Of a stretch of 64,000 bases of DNA, positions 46,667 to 64,000 are shown piece by piece. A model generated the notes under the pieces. The model had not been told where the DNA came from. It saw nothing but the letters and a program-made list of their open reading frames with translations, and made no database searches. Position numbers and translations under genes: made by a program. The stretch comes from Streptomyces rubiginosohelvolus (GTDB taxonomy: Bacteria; Actinomycetota; Actinomycetes; Streptomycetales; Streptomycetaceae). How positions within the stretch are numbered: the first letter of the stretch is position 1; the number at the start of each line of letters is the position of its first letter. Location of the stretch: assembly GCF_014649875.1 (NCBI RefSeq), contig NZ_BMTW01000001.1, positions 806,001-870,000 of the forward strand. Reading direction: 5' to 3'.

Positions 46667-47172
46667 GTGCCCGGCGGCTGATTCCTCCCGGATTCGGGCG
46701 GGTGGCTTTCGGCCGGATGGAAGATCGGGGGTGCGCGGGGGCGGGGCGAGGGGCGGCCGCGGTGAGCGGCGGGGCGCCGAGGTGGCCGAGAAGCCCATCG
46801 GCCCCGGTGAGCCGAGGATGAGCCACGCCCAGCTCTACGGAGGGCTTGGCCCCGGCCCGTACGGCGACCACATCGGCAACCGCTTCCATCCCCTGAAGCA
46901 ACATGGCGCGAATGCGCCCCTTGCGGTGGGGGCTGGTGGACGCGCCCCTTGACGACCTCCCAGCCCTCGTCCGTATGGTCTAGACCAAGCAGCGAAGGCA
47001 ATCCGGCCACGTCGATCACGTACGGCCCCGCACTCGCTCCCCGCCCCCACCTCCAGGCGCGCACCGCCCCGCACCATCCACGAATCGCCCCGTCGCCCCA
47101 GGTGCCCGACGAGCCGCGCGGGTCCACCCATGCACGTTTTCCCACCCCCACAGACATCACGGGAGATCGCAC
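46667..47172. other. 506-base region with a regulatory site and one doubtful ORF
   Basis: No secure gene. A plus-strand frame from GTG 46782 to TGA 46952 (56 residues, with YGGLGPGPYGDHIGNRFHP) has coding-like bias only in its first half, no ribosome-binding site of note, and no recognised family; it may be a gene remnant. The region also holds a promoter overlapped by a perfect DasR-type site (46976-46987) and about 180 bases of leader before the DoxX-like gene. Confidence 0.4.
46949..46987 (+). promoter_or_regulatory. Promoter overlapped by a perfect DasR-type (dre) operator
   Basis: TGGTCTAGACCA (46976-46987) is a perfect 12-base palindrome identical to the DasR core. A -35-like TTGACG (46949-46954) and -10-like TATGGT (46974-46979) lie 19 bases apart, and the operator overlaps the -10. 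DasR represses until aminosugar phosphates accumulate. The gene it would control is the DoxX-like gene at 47173. Confidence 0.6.
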
Positions 47173-52920: not shown

Positions 52921-54153
52921 TCAACCCGCCCATCTCCCCGTCAGGAACGTCAGCGCGACGAGCGTCGTCACCGGGGCCGCCACGCACAGGTACACCGTCC
53001 TGAACCACGGCCGACGCAGGCTCAGCGCCGCCAGGCCGATCCACAGCGGCCACCACAGCAGCGTCGCGCGCGGGACGGACGTGTACCAGTACGAGGTTCC
53101 CAACGCCCATAGGCTCAGGGCCACGTACACCACTTCCGGCCACCGGCGTCGGCGTACCAGCAGCACCACCAGGGCGAGACCCACCAGCATCGCCGCCAAC
53201 TCCGCCTGGAACATGAACGCGTAGCCGGTCGACTGCGTGCCGCCGAACGCCCCGGTCCAGGTGTTCACCCACGCCTCCCACGGGGTGTGGAACGTGCGGT
53301 ACCAGCCGCGTTCCTGCGCGTGCTTCCAGGCCATCCAGTCGCCGGTGTGCGCGTGCAGATACCAGCTGTACGCGGCCGGGGGCAGCGCGGGCAGCAGCGT
53401 CCAGCCCGTCGACCGCCAGGTCCGCCGGCCCCCGCCCGCACGGACGGACAGCAGGAACAGCAGCCCGATCGCCGCCGCGAGGAACAGGCCGCTGACGCGG
53501 ACCGCCGTGCCCAGCGTCGTCAGGACGGCGGCGAGCGCCCACCGGTGCTTCATGGCAGCGAGCCAGGCGGGCAGGGCGAACGCGAGGAACAGCGCCTCCG
53601 TGTAACCCGCCGCCAGGAACACCGCGCAGGGCGAGAGCAGAAAGAGGACGACCGTACGGTGTCCCGCCCCCTCCTCCGGCAGATACGCCCGCGCGACACG
53701 GGCCAGGGACAGTACGGCAACGGCCCCCGCGACCAACGAGATCAGCAGCCCGGCCCCCGTCCAGTCCGGTACGACCGTGTGCACGGCACGGAGCAGGAAG
53801 GGGTAGCCGGGGAAGAACGCCTCCCGGTTGTCCCAGCCGCTCGTCCACGGGCCCGCGCCCGCCGGGAAGTAGCCGTCGCGCGCTATGTGGAGGTAGTGGT
53901 TCGCGTCCCAGTGCTGGAAGGGCGCCAGGACCGGGGCCGTCTCCCGTACGCCGGACTGCGCGGGAAACAGCCAGCGGGCGAAGTGGGCCGTGATCCACAG
54001 GGATATCCGGGTCAGGAGGTAGAGCCACAGGACATCGCGATCGGCGGGGCTCAGGCGGAACCGCGCCGCCCGGGGCTCGGGCGCGGCGGCGGCCGCCGCA
54101 GGACGGACAGGCGGAGGCCGCAGTCCGGGGGAGAGCGTGGACAACGCAGGCAC
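52921..54153 (-). CDS. PIG-V-like mannosyltransferase family membrane protein
   Basis: A 410-residue polytopic protein with about nine to ten helices. After a Pro/Ala-rich cytoplasmic start, it has LITAHFARW-type helix 1, then FQHWDANHYLHIARDGYFP, with the WD pair of the mannosyltransferase family. ETEALFLAFALPAWLA-type and REAFFPGYPFLLRAV segments follow. This layout matches PIG-V/Gpi18-like glycosyltransferases, which in actinobacteria use polyprenyl-phosphate sugars outside the membrane. The donor and acceptor are unknown. GTG 54153 is used; TTG 54144, with GAAAGG eight bases upstream, is possible. Confidence 0.8.
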   Translation of the reverse strand: MPALSTLSPGLRPPPVRPAAAAAAPEPRAARFRLSPADRDVLWLYLLTRISLWITAHFARWLFPAQSGVRETAPVLAPFQHWDANHYLHIARDGYFPAGAGPWTSGWDNREAFFPGYPFLLRAVHTVVPDWTGAGLLISLVAGAVAVLSLARVARAYLPEEGAGHRTVVLFLLSPCAVFLAAGYTEALFLAFALPAWLAAMKHRWALAAVLTTLGTAVRVSGLFLAAAIGLLFLLSVRAGGGRRTWRSTGWTLLPALPPAAYSWYLHAHTGDWMAWKHAQERGWYRTFHTPWEAWVNTWTGAFGGTQSTGYAFMFQAELAAMLVGLALVVLLVRRRRWPEVVYVALSLWALGTSYWYTSVPRATLLWWPLWIGLAALSLRRPWFRTVYLCVAAPVTTLVALTFLTGRWAG

Positions 54154-54261
54154 CTTTCGGGCACGCCTCGCGGGTACGTCGGGGCGCGCCGGATCGCCCG
54201 GGAAGCCGCCGGGTCACGGAAGGGGAAGGGGCAGGGGAAGAGGAGAAGGGTGGCGGCCGCG

Positions 54262-54741
54262 TCAGGGCGTCGGCGCGCCCCCGTCAGTCGTCGCCGAAGC
54301 CGTCGGTGGCGTCATGCTCGTGCTCGTACTTGTGCTTGTACGCGTGGGCGGTCCGCCCGGCTCGGTGGTCCGGCCCGTCGGCCCCTCCGACCCAGCGCCC
54401 CCCGGCATCGTGGTGCTCGGCGACGGCGGCGGGGACGGCGGCTCCGTGGGCAGGCCCTGCGACGGTGCGGGCGACGGGTAGCTGGGCGACGGGCTCGTCG
54501 CCGGGGCCACCGGCTCCGGCCGCACCGGCAGCAGGCCCACCGCGACCGCGCCGCCCCCGCCGACGACCAGGCACACCCCCACCGCGACCACGGCCATCCG
54601 GCGTCGCTGGGCGCGCATGCCGCGCCGGGTGATGCCCGACGCGGTCTCCGGGGCGGTCAGTGCCTGCCCGAACTCCCCGGCCTCCCGGAACAGTGACCGC
54701 AACGGATCCTGCGGCTCCCTCGGGTCCTGCGGTTCAGACAT
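54262..54741 (-). CDS. Single-pass membrane protein coupled to the sigma factor
   Basis: A 159-residue protein. A ~65-residue cytoplasmic part (PLRSLFREAGEFGQALTAPETASGITRRG) precedes one membrane helix (MAVVAVGVCLVVGGGGAVAVGLL), followed by a ~75-residue Pro/Ser/Thr-rich extracytoplasmic tail. Its start overlaps the end of the sigma-factor gene by eight bases. Position and topology suggest a regulator of the sigma factor, but the His-x3-Cys-x2-Cys zinc motif of many anti-sigmas is absent. Confidence 0.75.
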   Translation of the reverse strand: MSEPQDPREPQDPLRSLFREAGEFGQALTAPETASGITRRGMRAQRRRMAVVAVGVCLVVGGGGAVAVGLLPVRPEPVAPATSPSPSYPSPAPSQGLPTEPPSPPPSPSTTMPGGAGSEGPTGRTTEPGGPPTRTSTSTSTSMTPPTASATTDGGAPTP

Positions 54742-55261
54742 CAGGAGCCTCCTCGATGCGGGGGTCCCGCAGACGGTGGGCGAGCGCCGCCCGTCCACGG
54801 ACCAGATGCGTCTTGATCGTGCTGGTGGAAAGCCCGGTCTCCCCGGCGATCTGCTCGACCGTGAGATCGCACAGGTAGTGCAGGGTCAGCGTCCGCCGCT
54901 GCTGGGCGGGCAGCTCCCGCAGCGCGTCGACCAGGACCACATGGTCCGGATCCGGCGGCGCCACGTGCTCCGCCGCACCGCTCCCCCGGCCCCAGGCGTC
55001 CGCCGACCGCCGCCGGAAACGCCAACGGCTCACCGCCAGCCGCCAGGCGACGGTACGGATCCACGCCTCGGGCTGCCCGTCCCGCTCCAGCCGCCCCCGC
55101 CGGACCCACGCCTTGACGAACGCTTCCTGCACGACGTCCTGCGCCTCCTGGAGGTCGCCGGTCATCACGTACAACTGGCCGGTGAGACGTGCGACCGCCT
55201 GGGCGTAGAACTCTTCGAACTCCTCGACGGTCAAAAGCTGCTCCCGGATCTTTCGCTTCAC
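54734..55261 (-). CDS. ECF sigma factor (SigE70/SigE family type)
   Basis: A 175-residue RNA polymerase sigma factor. Region 2 is EEFYAQAVARLTGQLYVMTGDLQEAQDVVQEAFVKAWVRRGRL, and region 4 is LRELPAQQRRTLTLHYLCDLTVEQIAGETGLSTSTIKTHLVRGRAAL. The short length and linker fit actinobacterial SigE-family ECF factors. GTG 55261 is the start. It is coupled to a membrane protein gene downstream, its likely regulator. Confidence 0.92.
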   Translation of the reverse strand: MKRKIREQLLTVEEFEEFYAQAVARLTGQLYVMTGDLQEAQDVVQEAFVKAWVRRGRLERDGQPEAWIRTVAWRLAVSRWRFRRRSADAWGRGSGAAEHVAPPDPDHVVLVDALRELPAQQRRTLTLHYLCDLTVEQIAGETGLSTSTIKTHLVRGRAALAHRLRDPRIEEAPDV

Positions 55262-55328
55262 CGGGTATACGCCCGCCGACGGCCGTCCGGTCTACATCAC
55301 CGGAGAGGCAATGGGGTGACCGTCGTCA

Positions 55329-55475
55329 CAGCCGGTGCTCGCCCTGGGCCGGCCGGCTCTCAGCCCGTGGTCACCCTGGGCCCGCGGTGCGCAGTCGGTG
55401 CTCACCCTGGGGCCCGCCGGTGCTCAGTCGGTCCCCACCCGGGGCCCGGCTCGGGTTCAGCCCGCCCCCACCCGC
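55329..55475. repeat. Imperfect ~32-base tandem repeats at the GNAT gene end
   Basis: About four and a half copies of a 31-33-base unit start at 55329, 55361, 55392, 55425 and 55458. The common plus-strand core is CAGYCSGTGSTCACCCTGGG-like. On the minus strand, the first copy contains the last codons and TGA of the GNAT gene, and later copies lie downstream of it. Confidence 0.8.
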
Positions 55476-56023
55476 TTCTCCAACAACGTCACCCCGTACG
55501 TCCGCCCGCCGTCGCCGTTCTTCCCCGCCTGCTCGCCGACCACCACGTACCCCGCCTCCTCGTAGTAGCGGCGGAGCCGGGTGTTCGACGTCAGGCAGTC
55601 GAGCCGGCACAGCGGGCGGCCCGACGCGGCGATCCGGCGCTCGGCCTCCGCCAGCAGCGCCCGCCCGGCTCCGGGCGGGGCGGTGCGCCGGTCCGTCATC
55701 AGCCGGTGGACATAGCCCGCGACCGGCGGCTGGACGCCCCAGGCCGGCTCGTCGTCCCACCACAGCTCCCAGGCCCCGGTACTCGGCCCGCCGGGGCCGA
55801 CCGTCGCGATCCACACCTCGCCCGCCCGCAACCGCGCCCCGAAGTGCTCCGGGCCCAGCTCCCCGGGCTTCCACTGGTCGATGCCGCGCTCGATCTGCCA
55901 CCGCGCGGCGTCGTCCCGGAGGCGGACGAGCTCGGTCAGGTCGCTCTCCCCCGCCCGCCGGAACGACAACGCGGGCGACAACATGAGCGAGGACTCCGCA
56001 GAGGAAGGGCTTGTGTGCGTCAT
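55457..56023 (-). CDS. GNAT-family N-acetyltransferase
   Basis: A 188-residue GNAT acetyltransferase. It has LSFRRAGESDLTELVRLRDDAARW near the start, then VAGYVHRLMTDRRTAPPGAGRALLAEAERRIAASGRPLCRLDCLTSNTRLRRYYEEAGYVVVG, including the acetyl-CoA-binding loop (normally R/Q-x2-G-x-G/A, here APPGAGRAL) and the closing YYE-GY motif. It sits 51 bases after the lasso exporter gene in the same direction. That makes it a candidate tailoring enzyme, but it may be an unrelated neighbour. Confidence 0.87.
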   Translation of the reverse strand: MTHTSPSSAESSLMLSPALSFRRAGESDLTELVRLRDDAARWQIERGIDQWKPGELGPEHFGARLRAGEVWIATVGPGGPSTGAWELWWDDEPAWGVQPPVAGYVHRLMTDRRTAPPGAGRALLAEAERRIAASGRPLCRLDCLTSNTRLRRYYEEAGYVVVGEQAGKNGDGGRTYGVTLLEKRVGAG

Positions 56024-56074
56024 GCCGTGATCTTCCCTCAGGAGGACCGGACCGCCGCCGCCCCGGCCGTACGC

Positions 56075-57931
56075 CTACACCCCTTGGCCGTCCGCCGCCA
56101 GCTGCGTCGTCGCCAGCTCGCGGTACAGCTCGTCCCCGGCGATCAGCTCCTCGTGCGTGCCCGCCGTGCGGACCCGGCCCTCCTCCAGGACCACGATGCG
56201 GTCCGCGTGCCGGACGGTGGACAGGCGGTGTGCGATCACCAGCACCGTGGTCCGCTGGGCCAGTTCGAGGATCACATCGCGCAGCGCCTGCTCGTTGACC
56301 GCGTCCAGTTGCGAGGTCACCTCGTCGAGGAGGAGCAGCCGGGGGTGGCGCAGGAGGGCACGGGCGATGGCGATGCGCTGGCGTTCGCCGCCGGAGAGGG
56401 TGACGCCCCGGTGGCCGACCGCCGTGTCCAGACCCTCGGGCAGCCGCTCGACCAGGGCGTCCAGCCGGGTACGGGTCACCGCCGCCGCCAGCTCCTTCTC
56501 GTCCGCGTCCGGGGCCGCGAAGAGGAGGTTCTCCCGCAGCGTCCCGGCGAGCACCGGCGCGTCCTGTTCCACGTACGCCAGCGAGCCCCGCAGTTCGGCC
56601 AGCGGCCAGTCCCGGATGTCGCGGCCGCCCACGGTGATCGTGCCGGCCTCGTGGTCGTAGAAGCGTTCCAGCAGGCTGAACACCGTCGACTTGCCCGCCC
56701 CGGACGGGCCCACCAGCGCCACCATCCCCCCGGCCGGCACATCGAACGTCACGCCTTGGTGGGCGGGGGCGCGCTCGTCCCCGTACCCGAAGGTCACGTC
56801 CTGGAAGGTCACCCCGAGCGGCCCGCCGTCCCCCTTCGTCAACCCGCCGGATTCCTCCGCCGGTTCGCCCGGCAGCGACTCCACCTCGTCGATCCGGCGC
56901 ACCGCCGCCAGCCCGCTCTGCAGGCCTGTCCACCCTTCGACCAGACCGGCGATCGGGCCCATCAGGTAGAAGAGGTAGAGCAGGAACGCGATCAGGGAGG
57001 AGATCTCCAGCGAGCCGGAGGCGGCCCGCGCGCCGCCGACGCCCAGCACCGCCAGGAACGCGAGCTGGATCGACATCGTCATCGTGACCTCGGTGACCGA
57101 GGACCACTTCGCCACCGTGACGCCCCGGTCGTGCGCATGCCGCGCCGCCGCCGCGACGGCCGCCGTCTCCCGGTCCTCCGCCCCGCTCGCCTTGACCGTA
57201 CGGAACGCCTGGAGCACCCGGTCCAGCGCCGCGCCCATCGCGCCCACGGACTCCTGCGCCTTGAGCTGCGCCCGCTGGATGCGCGGCATCAGCAGGGAGG
57301 TCACGGCCCCGATGCCGACGACCACCACCAGCGTCACGCCGAGCAGCGTCAGGTCCATGTACGCCATGAGGGCGATCGTGCCCAGCAGCATCAGCACGCT
57401 GTTGAACGACTCGACGAGCCCGCTCGACAGCACCGTACGGAGCAGGGTCGTGTCGCTCGTGACCCGTGACTGGAGGTCGCCCGGCGTCAGCCGGTCCACC
57501 GCCGGGACCTTCAACCGCATGATGCGGCCCACCAGTTGGTCGCGGGCGCGCAGGACCACTCCCTCTCCCGTGCGGGACATGAGAAAGCTCCCGTACGCGG
57601 AGAGGCAGGCTCCCGCCAGCACCAGCGCGGTCAGCGCGACGAGCGGGGCCACGGGCGAGCGGCCGTCGGCGAACGTGTCCACCGCGTGCTTCGCCATCAG
57701 CGGCATCGCCAGCCCCGCCCCGGACCCGGCGAGCGAGAGCAGGCCCGCCCGGATCAGGACGCCCCGGTGCGGACGGACCCGGGCGAGGAGCAGCCGGAGG
57801 GGGGACGGAGAGGTGGAGAGGGCCGGGACCGGGGGTGTCGGCGAGCCGGGCGGTTCCGTGTTCTCAGGCGGTCTGCCCGGGCCCTGACCCGTCTGCCCCG
57901 GCTCCGCCGCCGTCCCCGCCACCGCGCTCAC
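56075..57931 (-). CDS. Lasso-peptide ABC exporter (D protein)
   Basis: A 618-residue half-transporter. A ~45-residue Pro-rich start precedes a six-helix membrane domain (LLLARVRPHRGVLIRAGLLSLAGSGAGLAMPLMAKHAVDTFADG onward). The ATPase has Walker A LVGPSGAGKSTVFSLLER, Q-loop YVEQDAPVLAGTLRENLLF, signature TLSGGERQRIAIARALLR, Walker B LLLLDEVTSQLD and H-loop VIAHRLSTV. It overlaps the B2 gene by 68 bases. In lasso clusters, such transporters export the mature peptide and confer self-immunity. Confidence 0.92.
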   Translation of the reverse strand: MSAVAGTAAEPGQTGQGPGRPPENTEPPGSPTPPVPALSTSPSPLRLLLARVRPHRGVLIRAGLLSLAGSGAGLAMPLMAKHAVDTFADGRSPVAPLVALTALVLAGACLSAYGSFLMSRTGEGVVLRARDQLVGRIMRLKVPAVDRLTPGDLQSRVTSDTTLLRTVLSSGLVESFNSVLMLLGTIALMAYMDLTLLGVTLVVVVGIGAVTSLLMPRIQRAQLKAQESVGAMGAALDRVLQAFRTVKASGAEDRETAAVAAAARHAHDRGVTVAKWSSVTEVTMTMSIQLAFLAVLGVGGARAASGSLEISSLIAFLLYLFYLMGPIAGLVEGWTGLQSGLAAVRRIDEVESLPGEPAEESGGLTKGDGGPLGVTFQDVTFGYGDERAPAHQGVTFDVPAGGMVALVGPSGAGKSTVFSLLERFYDHEAGTITVGGRDIRDWPLAELRGSLAYVEQDAPVLAGTLRENLLFAAPDADEKELAAAVTRTRLDALVERLPEGLDTAVGHRGVTLSGGERQRIAIARALLRHPRLLLLDEVTSQLDAVNEQALRDVILELAQRTTVLVIAHRLSTVRHADRIVVLEEGRVRTAGTHEELIAGDELYRELATTQLAADGQGV

Positions 57932-58355
57932 CCTGAACCCCCTCGCGTACCGTCACCACCATCAAAGGACGCAGATCGGCGGCCTCTGCCTGCTCCCCGA
58001 CCGTACGTCCTTCCGCCAGCACCCAGGCGTGCGGGGAGAACGGCGGGGTCGCCCAGACCCCCGCGCACCAGTCGGGCCAGACACCGGACATCCGGCACGC
58101 CAGGGCGACGGCCACGGAGCGGGGCAGGCAGCCGTAACGGCTGGCGCAGCGGCGGCTGGTGGCGACGACCGCCTCCAGCACCTCCAGCGTCTCGGCGTAC
58201 GGGGCCGGGCGCGCGCCCCGCGAGCACCGGGCCAGCACCCGGCGCAGCCGGCCGGGCTTGAGCCGGGCCAGGACGAACGCGGCGGCGATGGCGGCCCGCA
58301 GGCGCACCCCGCCGGCTCCCGCGCCCCGGCGCGGCATCGTCATCTCGGTGGTCAT
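57864..58355 (-). CDS. Lasso peptide B2 protein (leader peptidase)
   Basis: A 163-residue transglutaminase-like cysteine protease. The catalytic Cys lies in SRRCASRYGCLPRSVAVAL and the His in FSPHAWVLAEG; the N-terminal helix region (AAFVLARLKPGRLRRVLARC) is typical. It removes the leader from the precursor. A Gly-rich tail beyond residue 140 runs over the exporter start. ATGA overlap with the B1 stop (58352-58355). Confidence 0.92.
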   Translation of the reverse strand: MTTEMTMPRRGAGAGGVRLRAAIAAAFVLARLKPGRLRRVLARCSRGARPAPYAETLEVLEAVVATSRRCASRYGCLPRSVAVALACRMSGVWPDWCAGVWATPPFSPHAWVLAEGRTVGEQAEAADLRPLMVVTVREGVQGERGGGDGGGAGADGSGPGQTA

Positions 58356-58603
58356 GGGCGCAGGATCTTCGCCTCGACGAGCCGGCGCGTCAGCTCCGCG
58401 ACGTCCGACTCGGCCTCGGCCCGCTCGACGTCGAACTCGGCGACGATCCGGTCGACGGCGGCCTCGGGGGCGCGGCCGGCGGCGAGGGTCTCGACGACGA
58501 TGACGCTGGTGTCGTTCAACTGCCAGTAGCTGCCGCTCTTCTCGTCGAGGAGGACGCCGCCGTACTCGGTGGTCGTGACGGCGATGCCTTTTCTGAGCTT
58601 CAC
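58352..58603 (-). CDS. Lasso peptide B1 protein (RRE, PqqD-like)
   Basis: An 83-residue RiPP recognition element of the PqqD fold: GIAVTTTEYGGVLLDEKSGSYWQLNDTSVIVVETLAAG, then a helix-turn-helix-like VDRIVAEFDVERAEAESDVAELTRRLVEAKIL. It binds the precursor leader and presents it to the B2 protease. GTG 58603 overlaps the cyclase stop by four bases. Confidence 0.93.
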   Translation of the reverse strand: MKLRKGIAVTTTEYGGVLLDEKSGSYWQLNDTSVIVVETLAAGRAPEAAVDRIVAEFDVERAEAESDVAELTRRLVEAKILRP

Positions 58604-60561
58604 AGGGATGCCTCGCTGGGGGTGGTCGTGGGGGTCGGCCGGTGTGTGGGCCAGGCGTTCTCGGCTGTGCGGAGCCAGGTCTCCCCGGCCACGGTGGAGC
58701 TGATGGAGTGTTCGACCAGGACCGGCGAGAAGGGTTCGGCCGCCAGTCGGAGCAGGTGGCGCGAATCCACCAGGCCGTGTTCGGCCAGGCGGGACCCGGT
58801 CCACAACTCGGCCAGGTCCGTAGCGTGTTCGCGCAGGCCCTGGTGTTCGTCGGAGGACATGTGGTCCTTCGTCGTCCGGGCCAGCAGCGCGTCGGGCACC
58901 ACCCCGCGCATCGCCTCGACGAGCAGCGGCTTGTAGCGCCAGGGGCTGATGCGCTCCGGGAGGCGGACGGCGAGGGTCGCCTCCAGGACCCGGTCGTCGT
59001 AGAAGGGCGCGGCGACCGGCAGCCCGAGCGTCATGCCGATGTCCTCCATCGCCTGGAAGTGCCGGGCTCCCATCCGTACGCCGTCGATGTCGACGTGCCT
59101 CCCCCGCCACGGGTCGATCGGTTCGGCGTGCTCGGCGGCGGCCCGGAACTCCTCGGCGATCAGGGTCTTGGCGTGCTCGGTGAGCCAGGGGTGCGGGGAC
59201 TGCCGTACGCCCCAGGAGAGCAGCGGGGTCCGGGCGACGGGCTGGGGTGCGGCGGTGACCGCCCCGGCGAGCCAGCGGGGGAACGCCGAACGGTCGAGCA
59301 GGGCCTTCAGCGTCGGCAGGAGCGGCCAGCCGAGCTGGTGGCGCAGGCCGCCGAGGTGGCTCCAGGCGGTGAACGGGTTGCCGCGGAAGAGGTCCTGGTA
59401 GGCGTGGGGCAGTCCGAGGAAGATCTCGTCGCCGCCGTAGCCGGTGAGGTGGTAGCGGGAGCCGGTGGCCCGGGCGCGGCCGAGGAGCAGTTCCGCACGG
59501 GCCCGGCCGGGGGCGACGGGGAGCGGTTCGTCGTTCAACTCGGCTGCTGTGGAGGCGAGATCGGCGTAGAAGTAGGGGGCGTCGGCGGCGGGGATGACGT
59601 GGTGGTCCAGGGCGGGGGCGGTGCTCGCGGCCGTGTTCCGTGCCACCTCGACCGCTCTGCGCGCCCAGCTCTCGTCCTCGCTGTAGCGGTCCCGGGCGGC
59701 CACCGTCAGCAGGGACAGCGACGCGGGGCCGGCCTCCCGGGCGGCGAAGGCGAGGACGGTGGAGTCCAGGCCGCCGGAGAGTTCGCAGCTGATCCGGTCG
59801 CGGCCGCCGACATGGGCCCGTACGGAGGCCGTGATGGCCTCTCCGACCCTGCGGGCTCCCTCCGCCAGGGGCAGTTCCCCGGGCGGCGGCTCCCACCAGC
59901 GGTGTTCCGTGGGACCGGGGACGGCGGCCGTGCCCGGTGCTGCGACGGGCAGGGCCAGGCCGTACCCGGCACCGGTCTCGTGGACGCCCCGCCACACGGC
60001 GCGGCGGCTCAGGGGGTGCGGCAGGAAGTCCAGCAGCCGGAGCGCCAGCGCGCTCTCGTCCAGGGGCGCGTCGATCAGGCGGGCCAGGACGGCGGGGCGG
60101 TCGGAGGCGATGGTTCCGGCCGCCGGGTGCCGGGCGTGGTAGATGCGGCGGAGCCCGGTGGCGGTGCCCCGGATCCAGCTCTTCCCCGACAGCCGGGCGA
60201 CCACGTGGTAGAGGCCGGGCAGCCGGGCGAGGCGGCGCTCCAGGCCGGTCCGGTCGCGGGCGCCTTCGAGGATTTGGGCGAGTACGGCGTCGGGGACGCG
60301 GTCCGGGCCGATGAGGACGAGGCCGTCCTCGCCGCGCGCGAGGTGGCTGACCTTGCGGACCAGCGGGCGGGCCACGACCCAGGGCCGGCCCGAGGGGTGG
60401 GCGACGGTCAGGGCGTCGCTCACCTCCCGGGCGGGCCCGGTGACGTCCGGCGCCGAGGACCGGCCGGCAGCCGCTTCCGGGACGGGAAGCTGCCCGGCCG
60501 CTGCCGCTCCCGCCGCGCTGTCCGGCAGGACGACGAAGTAGTCACGCAACTGGCCGGGCAT
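58600..60561 (-). CDS. Lasso peptide C protein (asparagine synthetase-like cyclase)
   Basis: A 653-residue ATP-dependent macrolactam synthetase. An N-terminal glutaminase-like domain lacks the catalytic Cys (MPGQLRDYFVVL). The synthetase domain has the PP-motif CELSGGLDSTVLAF and YHLTGYGGDEIFLGLPHAYQDLF. DHMSSDEHQGLREHATDLAELW is late. It activates the side-chain carboxylate (Glu9 of the core) to close the ring with Gly1. ATG 60561 has GAAAGG five bases upstream and is preferred over GTG 60567. Confidence 0.93.
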   Translation of the reverse strand: MPGQLRDYFVVLPDSAAGAAAAGQLPVPEAAAGRSSAPDVTGPAREVSDALTVAHPSGRPWVVARPLVRKVSHLARGEDGLVLIGPDRVPDAVLAQILEGARDRTGLERRLARLPGLYHVVARLSGKSWIRGTATGLRRIYHARHPAAGTIASDRPAVLARLIDAPLDESALALRLLDFLPHPLSRRAVWRGVHETGAGYGLALPVAAPGTAAVPGPTEHRWWEPPPGELPLAEGARRVGEAITASVRAHVGGRDRISCELSGGLDSTVLAFAAREAGPASLSLLTVAARDRYSEDESWARRAVEVARNTAASTAPALDHHVIPAADAPYFYADLASTAAELNDEPLPVAPGRARAELLLGRARATGSRYHLTGYGGDEIFLGLPHAYQDLFRGNPFTAWSHLGGLRHQLGWPLLPTLKALLDRSAFPRWLAGAVTAAPQPVARTPLLSWGVRQSPHPWLTEHAKTLIAEEFRAAAEHAEPIDPWRGRHVDIDGVRMGARHFQAMEDIGMTLGLPVAAPFYDDRVLEATLAVRLPERISPWRYKPLLVEAMRGVVPDALLARTTKDHMSSDEHQGLREHATDLAELWTGSRLAEHGLVDSRHLLRLAAEPFSPVLVEHSISSTVAGETWLRTAENAWPTHRPTPTTTPSEASL

Positions 60562-60611
60562 CTTCACCTTTCGGAAGTTCTCACGCGGTGCACAGGAATC
60601 GGATCGGCGGA

Positions 60612-60743
60612 TCAGACGATGCGACGGGTCCAGTACTCCTTGTACGAGCCGACGAAGTAGCCGGCGGTCTTCTTCGAGAAGTCGCCCTGCTGGAACATCG
60701 ACGGCTTCACGTAAGCCTTCTTCTGCTGCTTCTGCTGCTTCAT
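60612..60743 (-). CDS. Lasso peptide precursor (A), keywimysin-like
   Basis: A 43-residue precursor. The Gln/Lys-rich start MKQQKQQKK precedes the leader motif YVKPSMFQQGDFSKKTA, which fits the YxxPxL-x3-Gx2F-type recognition site and the conserved penultimate Thr. The core would be GYFVGSYKEYWTRRIV (16 residues): Gly1 and Glu9 close a nine-residue ring, and the tail YWTRRIV has Trp/Tyr and paired Arg that can plug the ring. There is no Cys, so it is class II. The KEYW sequence matches keywimysin. The ribosome-binding site is AAGGGAAGG. It is the first gene of the operon. Confidence 0.92.
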   Translation of the reverse strand: MKQQKQQKKAYVKPSMFQQGDFSKKTAGYFVGSYKEYWTRRIV

Positions 60744-60795
60744 GACACCTTCCCTTCTGTGCGGTTGACGACCGTTATGCGTAACTGGCCTCTGC

Positions 60796-60809
60796 ATAAC
60801 TGGAGTTAT
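60796..60809. promoter_or_regulatory. Palindrome upstream of the lasso precursor
   Basis: ATAACT-GG-AGTTAT is a perfect 14-base palindrome 53 bases before the precursor ATG. It overlaps a direct repeat of GCRTAACTGG. Low GC and position suit a regulator-binding site or core promoter. Confidence 0.45.
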
Positions 60810-60817
60810 TCGTGCGA

Positions 60818-60842
60818 CTGGTGTTCGTCATGCGAACACCAG
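60818..60842. promoter_or_regulatory. Long inverted repeat upstream of the lasso precursor
   Basis: CTGGTGTTCG (60818-60827) and CGAACACCAG (60833-60842) are perfect 10-base arms around a 5-base spacer, 75-100 bases before the precursor ATG. The position fits an operator or activator site for the lasso operon. Confidence 0.5.
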
Positions 60843-61300
60843 AGCCATCATGTCCGGCCGTTGAACCGGTACGCATGATTCCGACTTACCGTGCGAAGTT
60901 GGCTGGATAGCGCGAGCGTCGAGGTCCTGGCGGGCTCATTGCCGGACACCTCCGCCCCGGTCCGGGACCGCCTTGCCCCCACCCTGTGCAGTCGCACACG
61001 ACCCGGACAGGGGCAGCCGGTGGACTGGACCAATGGCGGGATGCGGCCACCGGACCGGGCAGTGAGCTGGCACGACGGGGAGCAGCCGTCGGCGGATCCG
61101 GCGAACCAGCCGGAACGGGCCCCGGACCGGGCTCCGCGGCCGCTCTACCCCAGGGATCGCGGGCGCGCCACCGCCCTCGGCACAGTCGCGCCGAAACGTG
61201 CTGCCGCACGGGAGTGGCCACGGCAAGTAGTCATTCGGCCACGCGGACCCCTCACAACCGCCCGGCCACCGGCGCTCACGAGCCGGAAGCCGCTCCTCCC

Positions 61301-61810
61301 CTACCTCTTGCGCAGCCGGTAGCCGCCCCAGGCCGCCGTTCCCGCGCCCACGAACAGCGGGATCATGCCGTAGCCGACGACCGTCGAGGAGTGGGCGTAC
61401 CAGCGTCCGCCGTCGAACACCTGGGTCGCGGTGATCGTCGCGGGGTCGTTCCGGCCGTCGTGGTCGGCGAAGAGAATTCTGCTGCGGCTGATCTCCTCGG
61501 ACCGAGGCACGCCGTCCACATGGGCGCGCAGCATCTCGCGGGCCACCAGGTCGCGCTCGGCCGCATTGACGCGCTGCTGGGCCGCGCTCTCGCCGAAGCA
61601 GTGCCAGACGGTCTGCCCCTTCTTGGTGCGGGTGTCGTCACAGTCGATCCGGCCGAAGGTCTCCACCCGCATGCCGAGGGCGCCGGAGAGGCCCGTCCCG
61701 GTCACCACGACGCCCAGCCCCAGCGCGAACAGCAGGGCGCCGCCCACGACGAGCGAGACCCCCTTGAGCCGCCCTCGGCCGCCCGTTCTCCCCGTACCGC
61801 TCCCGCTCAT
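61301..61810 (-). CDS. Hypothetical membrane protein with two helices
   Basis: A 169-residue protein. Helix 1 is VSLVVGGALLFALGLGVVVTGTGL, helix 2 is VVGYGMIPLFVGAGTAAWGGY near the C terminus. Between them is a ~95-residue hydrophilic loop with two Cys (RIDCDDTRTKKGQTVWHCFG) that may form an extracytoplasmic disulfide. It has no known domain. It is transcribed away from groEL2, toward the lasso cluster. Confidence 0.75.
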   Translation of the reverse strand: MSGSGTGRTGGRGRLKGVSLVVGGALLFALGLGVVVTGTGLSGALGMRVETFGRIDCDDTRTKKGQTVWHCFGESAAQQRVNAAERDLVAREMLRAHVDGVPRSEEISRSRILFADHDGRNDPATITATQVFDGGRWYAHSSTVVGYGMIPLFVGAGTAAWGGYRLRKR

Positions 61811-61970
61811 GCCCGTCCCGCCCCCCGTGTGCGTACGACCGTCCCCTCAGGTCATTGTCCCAAGGAACCCGGACACGCCACAGGGGCGGCACCTCCGTGA
61901 AGGAGATACCGCCCCTGTGGGACGTACGCCGAACTTCGATCAGGTGGGAGGCCGGGGCCTCCGTGCCCGA

Positions 61971-63746
<1,776 letters not shown>

Positions 63747-63752
63747 CGCCAA

Positions 63753-63781
63753 TGATTAGCACTCGACCCCCGAGAGTGCAA
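63753..63781 (-). promoter_or_regulatory. groEL2 promoter
   Basis: On the minus strand, TTGCAC (63781-63776) and TAATCA (63758-63753) are separated by 17 bases. Both lie within CIRCE element 2, which would block polymerase when HrcA is bound. Confidence 0.6.
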
Positions 63782-63782
63782 G
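63756..63782. promoter_or_regulatory. CIRCE element 2 (HrcA operator)
   Basis: TTAGCACTC-N9-GAGTGCAAG: perfect left arm and 7 of 9 in the right arm, with the correct 9-base spacer. It overlaps the groEL2 -35 and -10. The centre lies 36 bp from that of element 1. Confidence 0.8.
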
Positions 63783-63863
63783 CGCCTTCGGCGAGTGCCC
63801 ACCATGCGGCCGAGGGGCGCGAAGCCCTGCCGGCACCGGGCCGTGACCGCCGCCCGTCCCCCT

Positions 63864-63917
63864 CACGCGCGTAGGGCCCGATCCCCTGATCCGGGGTCGG
63901 GCCCTACGTGCGTGAGT
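63864..63917 (-). terminator. Terminator of the cold-shock gene
   Basis: CACGCGCGTAGGGCCCGATC... pairs with ...GGGGTCGGGCCCTACGTGCGTG, about 23 bp with two wobble pairs and a 6-base loop. It begins 27 bases after the stop of the cold-shock gene (minus strand) and shields groEL2 from read-through. Confidence 0.8.
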
Positions 63918-63943
63918 GGTGTCGTCGGACGACCGCGCCGAGC

Positions 63944-64000
63944 TCAGCCGACGGCGAGCTTGACCATGTCGGCCTGGGGCCCCTTCTGGCCCTGCGAGAT
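63944..64000 (-). CDS. Cold-shock protein, C-terminal end (partial)
   Basis: The final 18 residues read ISQGQKGPQADMVKLAVG before TGA. QGQKGPQA is the canonical end of ~67-residue CspA-type proteins (FEVxQGQKGPQA). It is an RNA chaperone; the RNP motifs lie outside the window. The gene precedes groEL2 in the same direction and is separated from it by a strong terminator. Confidence 0.9.
   Translation of the reverse strand: MSQGQKGPQADMVKLAVG

What the first reader, a model, noticed from the sequence alone, without database searches (positions are those of the whole stretch)
56075..60743. Complete keywimysin-like lasso peptide cluster (A-C-B1-B2-D)
Seen: five co-directional genes with overlaps (C/B1 and B1/B2 by four bases, B2/D by 68), and a 43-residue precursor with leader YVKPSMFQQGDFSKKTA. 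The predicted 16-residue core is GYFVGSYKEYWTRRIV, with Gly1 and Glu9 giving a nine-residue ring. Known: lasso leaders need YxxPxL and a penultimate Thr, C closes a Gly/Ala1-to-Asp/Glu7-9 bond, and keywimysin has this KEYW core. Inference: this strain makes keywimysin or a close variant. The family is described, so novelty lies in the variant and the neighbours.
Basis: partly seen in the sequence, partly recalled or inferred. Interest (0 to 1): 0.75.

Follow-up and report, generated by a model that had tools for sequence, protein, structure and literature searches.

The report
Known lasso peptide, likely DasR-switched
This Streptomyces DNA holds a complete five-gene lasso-peptide cluster whose predicted 16-residue product has exactly the published 9810-LP sequence, so the peptide is not new, but a conserved DNA site upstream suggests that the cluster is likely switched by DasR, the regulator that senses chitin sugars.

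Summary
In detail: genes A-C-B1-B2-D lie on the minus strand at 56075-60743 with the overlaps stated; profiles support A, C, B1 and B2 as lasso genes and D as an ABC transporter. The order is kept in 12 of 14 related clusters; contig ends cut the other two. Novelty of the peptide falls: the core GYFVGSYKEYWTRRIV is letter for letter 9810-LP, made in two Streptomyces hosts and judged threaded by carboxypeptidase test (PMC5974421). The neighbouring acetyltransferase gene is not a conserved partner. New is the upstream region: an invariant block, TGGTCCAGTCCAC, 289 nt before A, is DasR-site-like. Its exact pairing with a second block occurs in 9 of 392 genomes of the genus, all with this cluster. 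Similar sites in this genome precede three GH18 (chitinase-family) genes and a PTS gene, and the genome encodes DasR. DasR control is inferred, not shown; on the full 16-nt consensus the site scores at chance level.

The parts
60612..60743 (-). A: precursor peptide, 27-residue leader MKQQKQQKKAYVKPSMFQQGDFSKKTA and 16-residue predicted core GYFVGSYKEYWTRRIV
   Evidence: ORF; PF19397 37.3 bits, cut-off 22.6; two of four homologues named keywimysin-related RiPP; core identical to 9810-LP
58600..60567 (-). C: asparagine-synthase-like protein, predicted macrolactam synthetase (start more likely ATG at 60561)
   Evidence: PF00733 125 bits; NF033561 albusnodin/ikarugamycin cyclase 216.5 bits, below its cut-off of 300; S264-G265-G266-x-D268-S269 invariant in 13 of 13 relatives compared (L018 left out as cut)
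58352..58603 (-). B1: PqqD-type protein, predicted leader binder
   Evidence: NF033530 97.5 bits, cut-off 70; PF05402
57864..58355 (-). B2: transglutaminase-like protein, predicted leader-cutting cysteine protease
   Evidence: NF033537 100.8 bits, cut-off 33; PF13471; C76, H109 and E121 invariant in 13 of 13 relatives compared
56075..57931 (-). D: ABC transporter (membrane and ATPase domains in one chain), predicted exporter; start uncertain
   Evidence: PF00664 and PF00005; follows B2 in 12 of 12 relatives in which the contig reaches it
61019..61034 (-). dre-like site ATTGGTCCAGTCCACC; 13-nt block starts 289 nt before A (12-mer core at 61021-61032); predicted DasR operator
   Evidence: 12-mer found; 13-nt block invariant in 9 of 9 groEL-linked clusters; exact 12-mer in 12 of 15 clusters with the close-type upstream region and 0 of 9 others
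60985..60999 (-). second conserved block GTGTGCGACTGCACA (TGTGC/GCACA inverted repeat), function unknown
   Evidence: longest invariant run, 15 nt in 9 of 9; exact pair with the dre-like core in 9 of 392 genomes, all with the cluster
60818..60842 (-). third conserved element, inverted repeat CTGGTGTTC...GAACACCAG, 75-99 nt before A, function unknown

Best explanation
The five genes at 56075-60743 form a lasso-peptide cluster whose 43-residue precursor carries exactly the core sequence of the published peptide 9810-LP, and the cluster is likely switched by the regulator DasR through a conserved site 289 nt upstream. Inferred steps, from family knowledge: the genes are co-transcribed; B1 binds the leader around YVKPSM; B2 cuts after Ala27; C activates Glu9 with ATP and joins it to the amino group of Gly1, closing a nine-residue ring around the tail; D exports the product. 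Arg13-Arg14 would hold the tail, as the carboxypeptidase data for 9810-LP suggest. Also inferred: DasR represses the genes and lets go when amino-sugar phosphates from chitin or cell wall rise. Shown here: gene content, conservation, core identity, the site's conservation, and its likeness to sites ahead of GH18 genes in the same genome.
For: Gene families and cut-offs. A-C-B1-B2-D order in 12 of 14 related clusters, two cut by contig ends. Motor and protease residues invariant in 13 of 13 compared. Core identical to 9810-LP, whose measured [M+3H]3+ 669.35 equals the value computed for this core minus water, 669.348. Regulation: the two longest invariant runs in 500 nt upstream of nine clusters are the 15-nt repeat and the 13-nt dre-like block; the exact pair occurs in 9 of 392 genomes, the same nine (of 15 with a relative of A) whose clusters are groEL-linked; TGGTCYAGWCCA has 15 strand hits (13 places) in this genome against 4 strand hits for the reversed control, and 5 of the 13 places lie before GH18 genes (3), a PTS EIIC gene and an LPMO_10 gene; with one mismatch allowed the window has 5 strand hits against a mean of 0.66 in shuffles; the genome encodes DasR (482 bits to 4zs8 over residues 34-287).
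Against: No product was measured from this strain. For 9810-LP itself the thread rests on carboxypeptidase data; its MS/MS lacked rotaxane ions and ion mobility was reported for the other two peptides only. Against the 16-nt consensus A(G/C)TGGTCTAGACCA(G/C)T (PMC4398421) the site scores 12 of 16; the window has three places at that score against about three expected (6 strand hits, 6.2 expected). The pattern was drawn to include this site. Eight of the 13 genome places are not beside evident chitin genes: RTX protein, GH1/DUF417 neighbours, condensation domain, BTAD regulator, ABC ATPase, PdtaS kinase, GH6 and this cluster itself; the PTS sugar is not known and Pfam calls LPMO_10 cellulose-degrading. 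Three of 15 close-type clusters have a changed 12-mer and 0 of 9 others have it. The site is far from the start codon, no transcription start is known, and no sigma-70-type promoter was found.
Confidence: 0.85

Rival explanations
1. The cluster makes an acetylated lasso peptide: the GNAT-like gene at 55457-56023, 51 bases after D and co-directional, would acetylate Lys8, as in albusnodin.
For: Position and direction; C is nearest to the albusnodin/ikarugamycin cyclase model; weak GNAT profile hits, below the Pfam cut-offs.
Against: Of 12 related clusters with D in view, 10 have no GNAT match in the 4.7-6.1 kb fetched beyond D, including the closest (98% identical precursor); the other two have it 0.9 and 1.4 kb away. 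9810-LP was found at its unacetylated mass, though whether a GNAT was in that construct was not seen. C is below the model's cut-off.
Confidence: 0.04
2. The conserved upstream blocks are operators of a regulator other than DasR (another GntR-type protein) or parts of the promoter itself, and the cluster is not under DasR.
For: 16-nt consensus score at chance level; a second, longer block of unknown reader next to it; site absent in 9 of 9 distant clusters judged.
Against: The same 12-mer class stands before GH18 and PTS genes in the same genome and DasR is present.
Confidence: 0.4
3. The conserved blocks belong to the neighbouring groEL-like or 61301-61810 genes rather than to the lasso genes.
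For: The nine clusters with the blocks are all next to groEL (named by me from its sequence, no profile was run).
Against: The blocks lie downstream of those genes and upstream of A, in the same direction, and no genome without a relative of A among 392 has the pair.
Confidence: 0.05

Closest known systems
9810-LP, Streptomyces sp. ADI98-10 (Mevaere et al. 2018, PMC5974421; outline with abstract, Results and Discussion read, other passages)
   Same: Core GYFVGSYKEYWTRRIV identical in all 16 residues; same Glu9 ring; core genes in the same order (A-C-E-B in its terms).
   Different: Leader differs (MKLQKKAYVKPSLFKQGDFSKKTA there); it was expressed from a foreign promoter, so native control was not tested.
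SRO15-2005 (core seen in a table of PMC12427821; passages only)
   Same: GYFVGSYKEYWSRRII: 14 of 16 residues, same predicted ring, identical exact mass.
   Different: Ser12 and Ile16 in place of Thr12 and Val16.
Keywimysin, Streptomyces sp. NRRL F-5702 (name and strain seen in a passage of PMC13151935; original paper not held)
   Same: Two of four homologues of A bear the name keywimysin-related RiPP; a CS-7 region is called keywimysin in one table and SRO15-2005 in another.
   Different: Its published core was not seen, so identity could not be tested.
Albusnodin (acetylated lasso peptide; recalled, its reference seen)
   Same: C is nearest to the albusnodin/ikarugamycin cyclase model.
   Different: Score below the cut-off; no conserved acetyltransferase.
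DasR regulon (PMC4398421, PMC9404778; passages)
   Same: Upstream site resembles dre; DasR represses daptomycin genes in S. roseosporus through dre-like sites.
   Different: Binding to this cluster is not shown by any search; the word lasso does not occur in the main text of those two papers.

Membership tests
Lasso peptide cluster | Precursor with YxxPx(L/M) leader motif and Thr at position -2 | tested here: met
   YVKPSM and Thr26-Ala27; motif in 24 of 25 rows (the other, L067, is cut) and Thr at -2 in 25 of 25
Lasso peptide cluster | Gly/Ala1 and Asp/Glu at 7-9 | tested here: met
   Gly1, Glu9; Gly1 and Glu9 in 15 of 15 (sequences), including the divergent L029
Lasso peptide cluster | C, B1 (leader binder) and B2 (protease) present with active residues | tested here: met
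   which residues are active is recalled, and the third triad place of B2 (Glu121) is assigned by its distance from His109, from memory
Lasso peptide cluster | Threaded, dehydrated product | not testable with these tools
   Published for the identical core: carboxypeptidase products G1-I15, G1-R14 and, after partial unthreading, G1-Y10
9810-LP | Core sequence | tested here: met
   16 of 16 residues
Keywimysin | Core sequence of the named compound | not tested
   paper not held
Acetylated (albusnodin-type) lasso peptides | Cyclase above model cut-off | tested here: not met
   216.5 bits against a cut-off of 300
Acetylated (albusnodin-type) lasso peptides | Conserved acetyltransferase in the cluster | tested here: not met
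   2 of 12 clusters with D in view, and not adjacent there
DasR regulon | dre site upstream | tested here: inconclusive
   12-mer class match and strong conservation, but 12 of 16 on the full consensus is at chance level
DasR regulon | DasR present in the genome | tested here: met
   L098:1471-2331, 482 bits to 4zs8
DasR regulon | Binding and expression change | not testable with these tools
   needs binding and knockout tests

The most novel reading that the evidence does not exclude
The keywimysin/SRO15-2005/9810-LP lasso clusters of the groEL-linked Streptomyces group belong to the DasR regulon: a two-part upstream element, a dre site followed after about 21 nt by a TGTGC/GCACA repeat, ties lasso-peptide production to chitin or cell-wall amino sugars. 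That could help to explain why such clusters are often silent in the laboratory, and would point to a role of the peptide during growth on chitin or during mycelial turnover.
Probability: 0.5. Interest if true: 0.5.

Novelty: already known. Interest (0 to 1): 0.3.

Why it matters
The peptide is known, but 9810-LP was inactive on the six bacteria tested, and the same paper calls the factors that trigger lasso-peptide production in native strains largely unknown. A precise, conserved, testable candidate switch gives a way to try to turn these clusters on in native strains and a clue to the ecological setting. The isomer point guards against a false identification: 9810-LP and SRO15-2005 cannot be told apart by mass.

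Tried and rejected
Acetyltransferase as tailoring enzyme: rejected on neighbour comparison. Solved-structure relatives of C and B2 by sequence: none at E <= 0.001. Rfam in 54000-64000: none at the gathering threshold. PADLOC on C and B2: none. Sigma-70 promoter scan of 55300-61400: none. A second cluster in the same genome with a B1 of this type (NF033530): none, 1 match only; lasso clusters with other kinds of B1 were not searched for. PF19397 in the order: 105 of 391 genomes match, 100 over the cut-off, not followed further. No structure prediction was run: the ring and thread of a 16-residue core with an isopeptide bond would not be modelled.

The pattern fixes G1, Y2, F3, G5, Y7, K8, E9, R13 and R14, so the constancy of those residues in its 24 loci is by design and is not used as evidence.

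Full report
What is there. On the minus strand, 60743 down to 56075, five co-directional genes stand in the order A-C-B1-B2-D. A is 43 residues. Families: C has the asparagine synthase domain PF00733 (125 bits) and is nearest to the NCBI model for albusnodin/ikarugamycin-type cyclases (216.5 bits, cut-off 300); B1 passes the lasso PqqD model NF033530 (97.5, cut-off 70); B2 passes the lasso B2 model NF033537 (100.8, cut-off 33); D has the ABC membrane and ATPase domains; A matches PF19397, DUF5972 (37.3, cut-off 22.6).

Conservation. Of 392 genomes of the window's genus (its own included) 15 encode a relative of A at E <= 0.01. I fetched 14 surroundings and searched them with ten window proteins. 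A, C, B1 and B2 are found in order in 13 of 14 and D follows in 12 of 14; L018 is cut by its contig end inside C and L026 just after B2. In eight relatives (G203, G287, G178, G126, G005, G127, G056 and G347: L016-L023) the cluster lies beside a groEL-like gene, as in the window. In five others (L024, L025, L026, L028, L029) no GroEL match is found in the 4-10 kb fetched upstream; L027 has only 0.7 kb there and cannot be judged. In 13 relatives compared (L018 left out), S264-G265-G266-x-D268-S269 and G378-G379-D380-E381 of C and C76, H109 and E121 of B2 are invariant.

The peptide is known. A search for the core's letters (27 papers hold a term, 20 were listed, of these two concern this peptide family, the rest being other uses of the letters) led to PMC5974421. 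Its Table 1 lists 9810-LP with the core GYFVGSYKEYWTRRIV, identical to the window's. It was detected in S. albus and S. lividans carrying the cluster under a foreign promoter, seen as a 3+ ion at m/z 669.35, fragmented partly inside the ring without rotaxane ions, gave carboxypeptidase products read by the authors as a thread held by R13-R14 that can partly unthread, and was inactive on the six bacteria tested; ion mobility was reported only for the other two peptides. The computed value for the window's core minus one water is 669.348. SRO15-2005, core GYFVGSYKEYWSRRII in a review table, has the same mass, 2005.021.

Core census. A scan of one genome per species for a degenerate core pattern gave 24 loci, all titled Streptomyces. 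With the window that is 25 rows and 11 distinct cores: the SRO15-2005 core in 5, GYFYGSYKEYWVRRII in 4, GYFVGSYKEYWTRRII in 3, and the window's core in 3 (window, S. anulatus NRRL B-2873 and Streptomyces sp. WZ.A104).

Neighbours. The GNAT-like gene 55457-56023 follows D by 51 bases. Among 12 relatives with D in view it is found in two, 0.9 and 1.4 kb away, and not in ten, among them the closest. A lasso role is unlikely. A SigE-family sigma factor gene (54734-55261) is kept within 4 kb of D in five of the eight groEL-linked relatives (L016, L017, L019, L020, L022); L018 is cut, and L021 and L023 show no match. No link to the cluster is claimed.

The upstream region. A lies 557 bases after the stop of the previous co-directional frame (61301-61810). 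In nine groEL-linked clusters (window plus eight) I aligned 500 nt before the start codon: 219 of 513 columns are invariant; the two longest invariant runs are GTGTGCGACTGCACA (15 nt, at -256) and TGGTCCAGTCCAC (13 nt, at -289). The exact pair, with 12-32 nt allowed between, occurs in 9 of 392 genomes, once each, and these are the same nine (reversed control 0). In the 24 loci plus window, L067 cannot be judged; of the other 24, 15 have the third element (at most 5 mismatches), which I take as the mark of the close type (groEL itself was not checked in these loci); 12 of the 15 have the exact 12-mer TGGTCCAGTCCA and three (L063, L065, L081) have changed forms; 0 of the 9 others have it in the stretch searched, 541-569 nt.

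Why DasR. The published dre consensus is A(G/C)TGGTCTAGACCA(G/C)T (passage of PMC4398421); a looser form is given in PMC9404778 (passages). In this genome TGGTCYAGWCCA has 13 places (15 strand hits; 4 for the reversed pattern). I took the likeliest downstream frame at each place, by third-position GC and orientation: three GH18 proteins, one PTS EIIC, one LPMO_10, one GH6, one RTX protein, one condensation-domain protein, one BTAD regulator, one ABC ATPase and one PdtaS-type kinase; the remaining two are window 46976 (between a GH1 gene and a DUF417 gene) and this cluster. The genome's best UTRA-domain regulator, of nine found, matches DasR structures (482 bits, 4zs8). Against: on the full 16-nt consensus the site scores 12, no better than chance for a 64-kb window, and the pattern was drawn to include this site. 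I put direct DasR control at about 0.5.

Literature on that link. A search for 'lasso peptide' with 'DasR' gave two papers: in one (PMC7876522, passages) DasR is only an example in the introduction; the other was seen as a listing only. A search of five terms, three required, listed three papers, none holding DasR. So I found no report of DasR control of these clusters in the held library, which lacks most subscription papers.

Verdict. A complete and conserved lasso cluster with a known product; the name keywimysin is plausible but untested; the one lead worth following is the conserved, DasR-like two-part element.

Noticed in passing
window 61019-61034 (-): dre-like site about 289 nt before A, part of a two-block element found in 9 of 392 genomes, all with this cluster.
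   Followed up: yes
window 60985-60999 (-): 15-nt block GTGTGCGACTGCACA, longest invariant run upstream of the cluster; the protein that reads it is unknown.
   Followed up: partly
window 60818-60842 (-): Conserved inverted repeat CTGGTGTTC...GAACACCAG 75-99 nt before A; a looser form (6 mismatches of 22) is seen in two distant clusters (L026, L028).
   Followed up: partly
window 46976-46987: Perfect palindrome TGGTCTAGACCA, a full dre core, between a GH1 glycosidase gene and a DUF417 gene.
   Followed up: partly
L092 (own genome, C15:165767): The same 12-mer as at the lasso cluster, TGGTCCAGTCCA, stands just before the frame of a BTAD-domain (SARP-like) regulator: a possible second regulatory target.
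   Followed up: no
L091 (own genome, C12:196221): TGGTCCAGACCA next to a condensation-domain (peptide synthetase) frame.
   Followed up: no
PF19397 (DUF5972): This family of unknown function matches the lasso precursor's residues 8-36 and is found in 105 of 391 genomes of the order; it may be a lasso leader family at large.
   Followed up: no
L029 (5350000-5364000 of G051 C1): A divergent relative with predicted core GWFMSKKSENLTWRIGGS, same five-gene order, Glu9 kept but the YKEYW centre lost.
   Followed up: no
window 55457-56023 (-): GNAT-like gene 51 bases after D; not conserved as a neighbour.
   Followed up: yes
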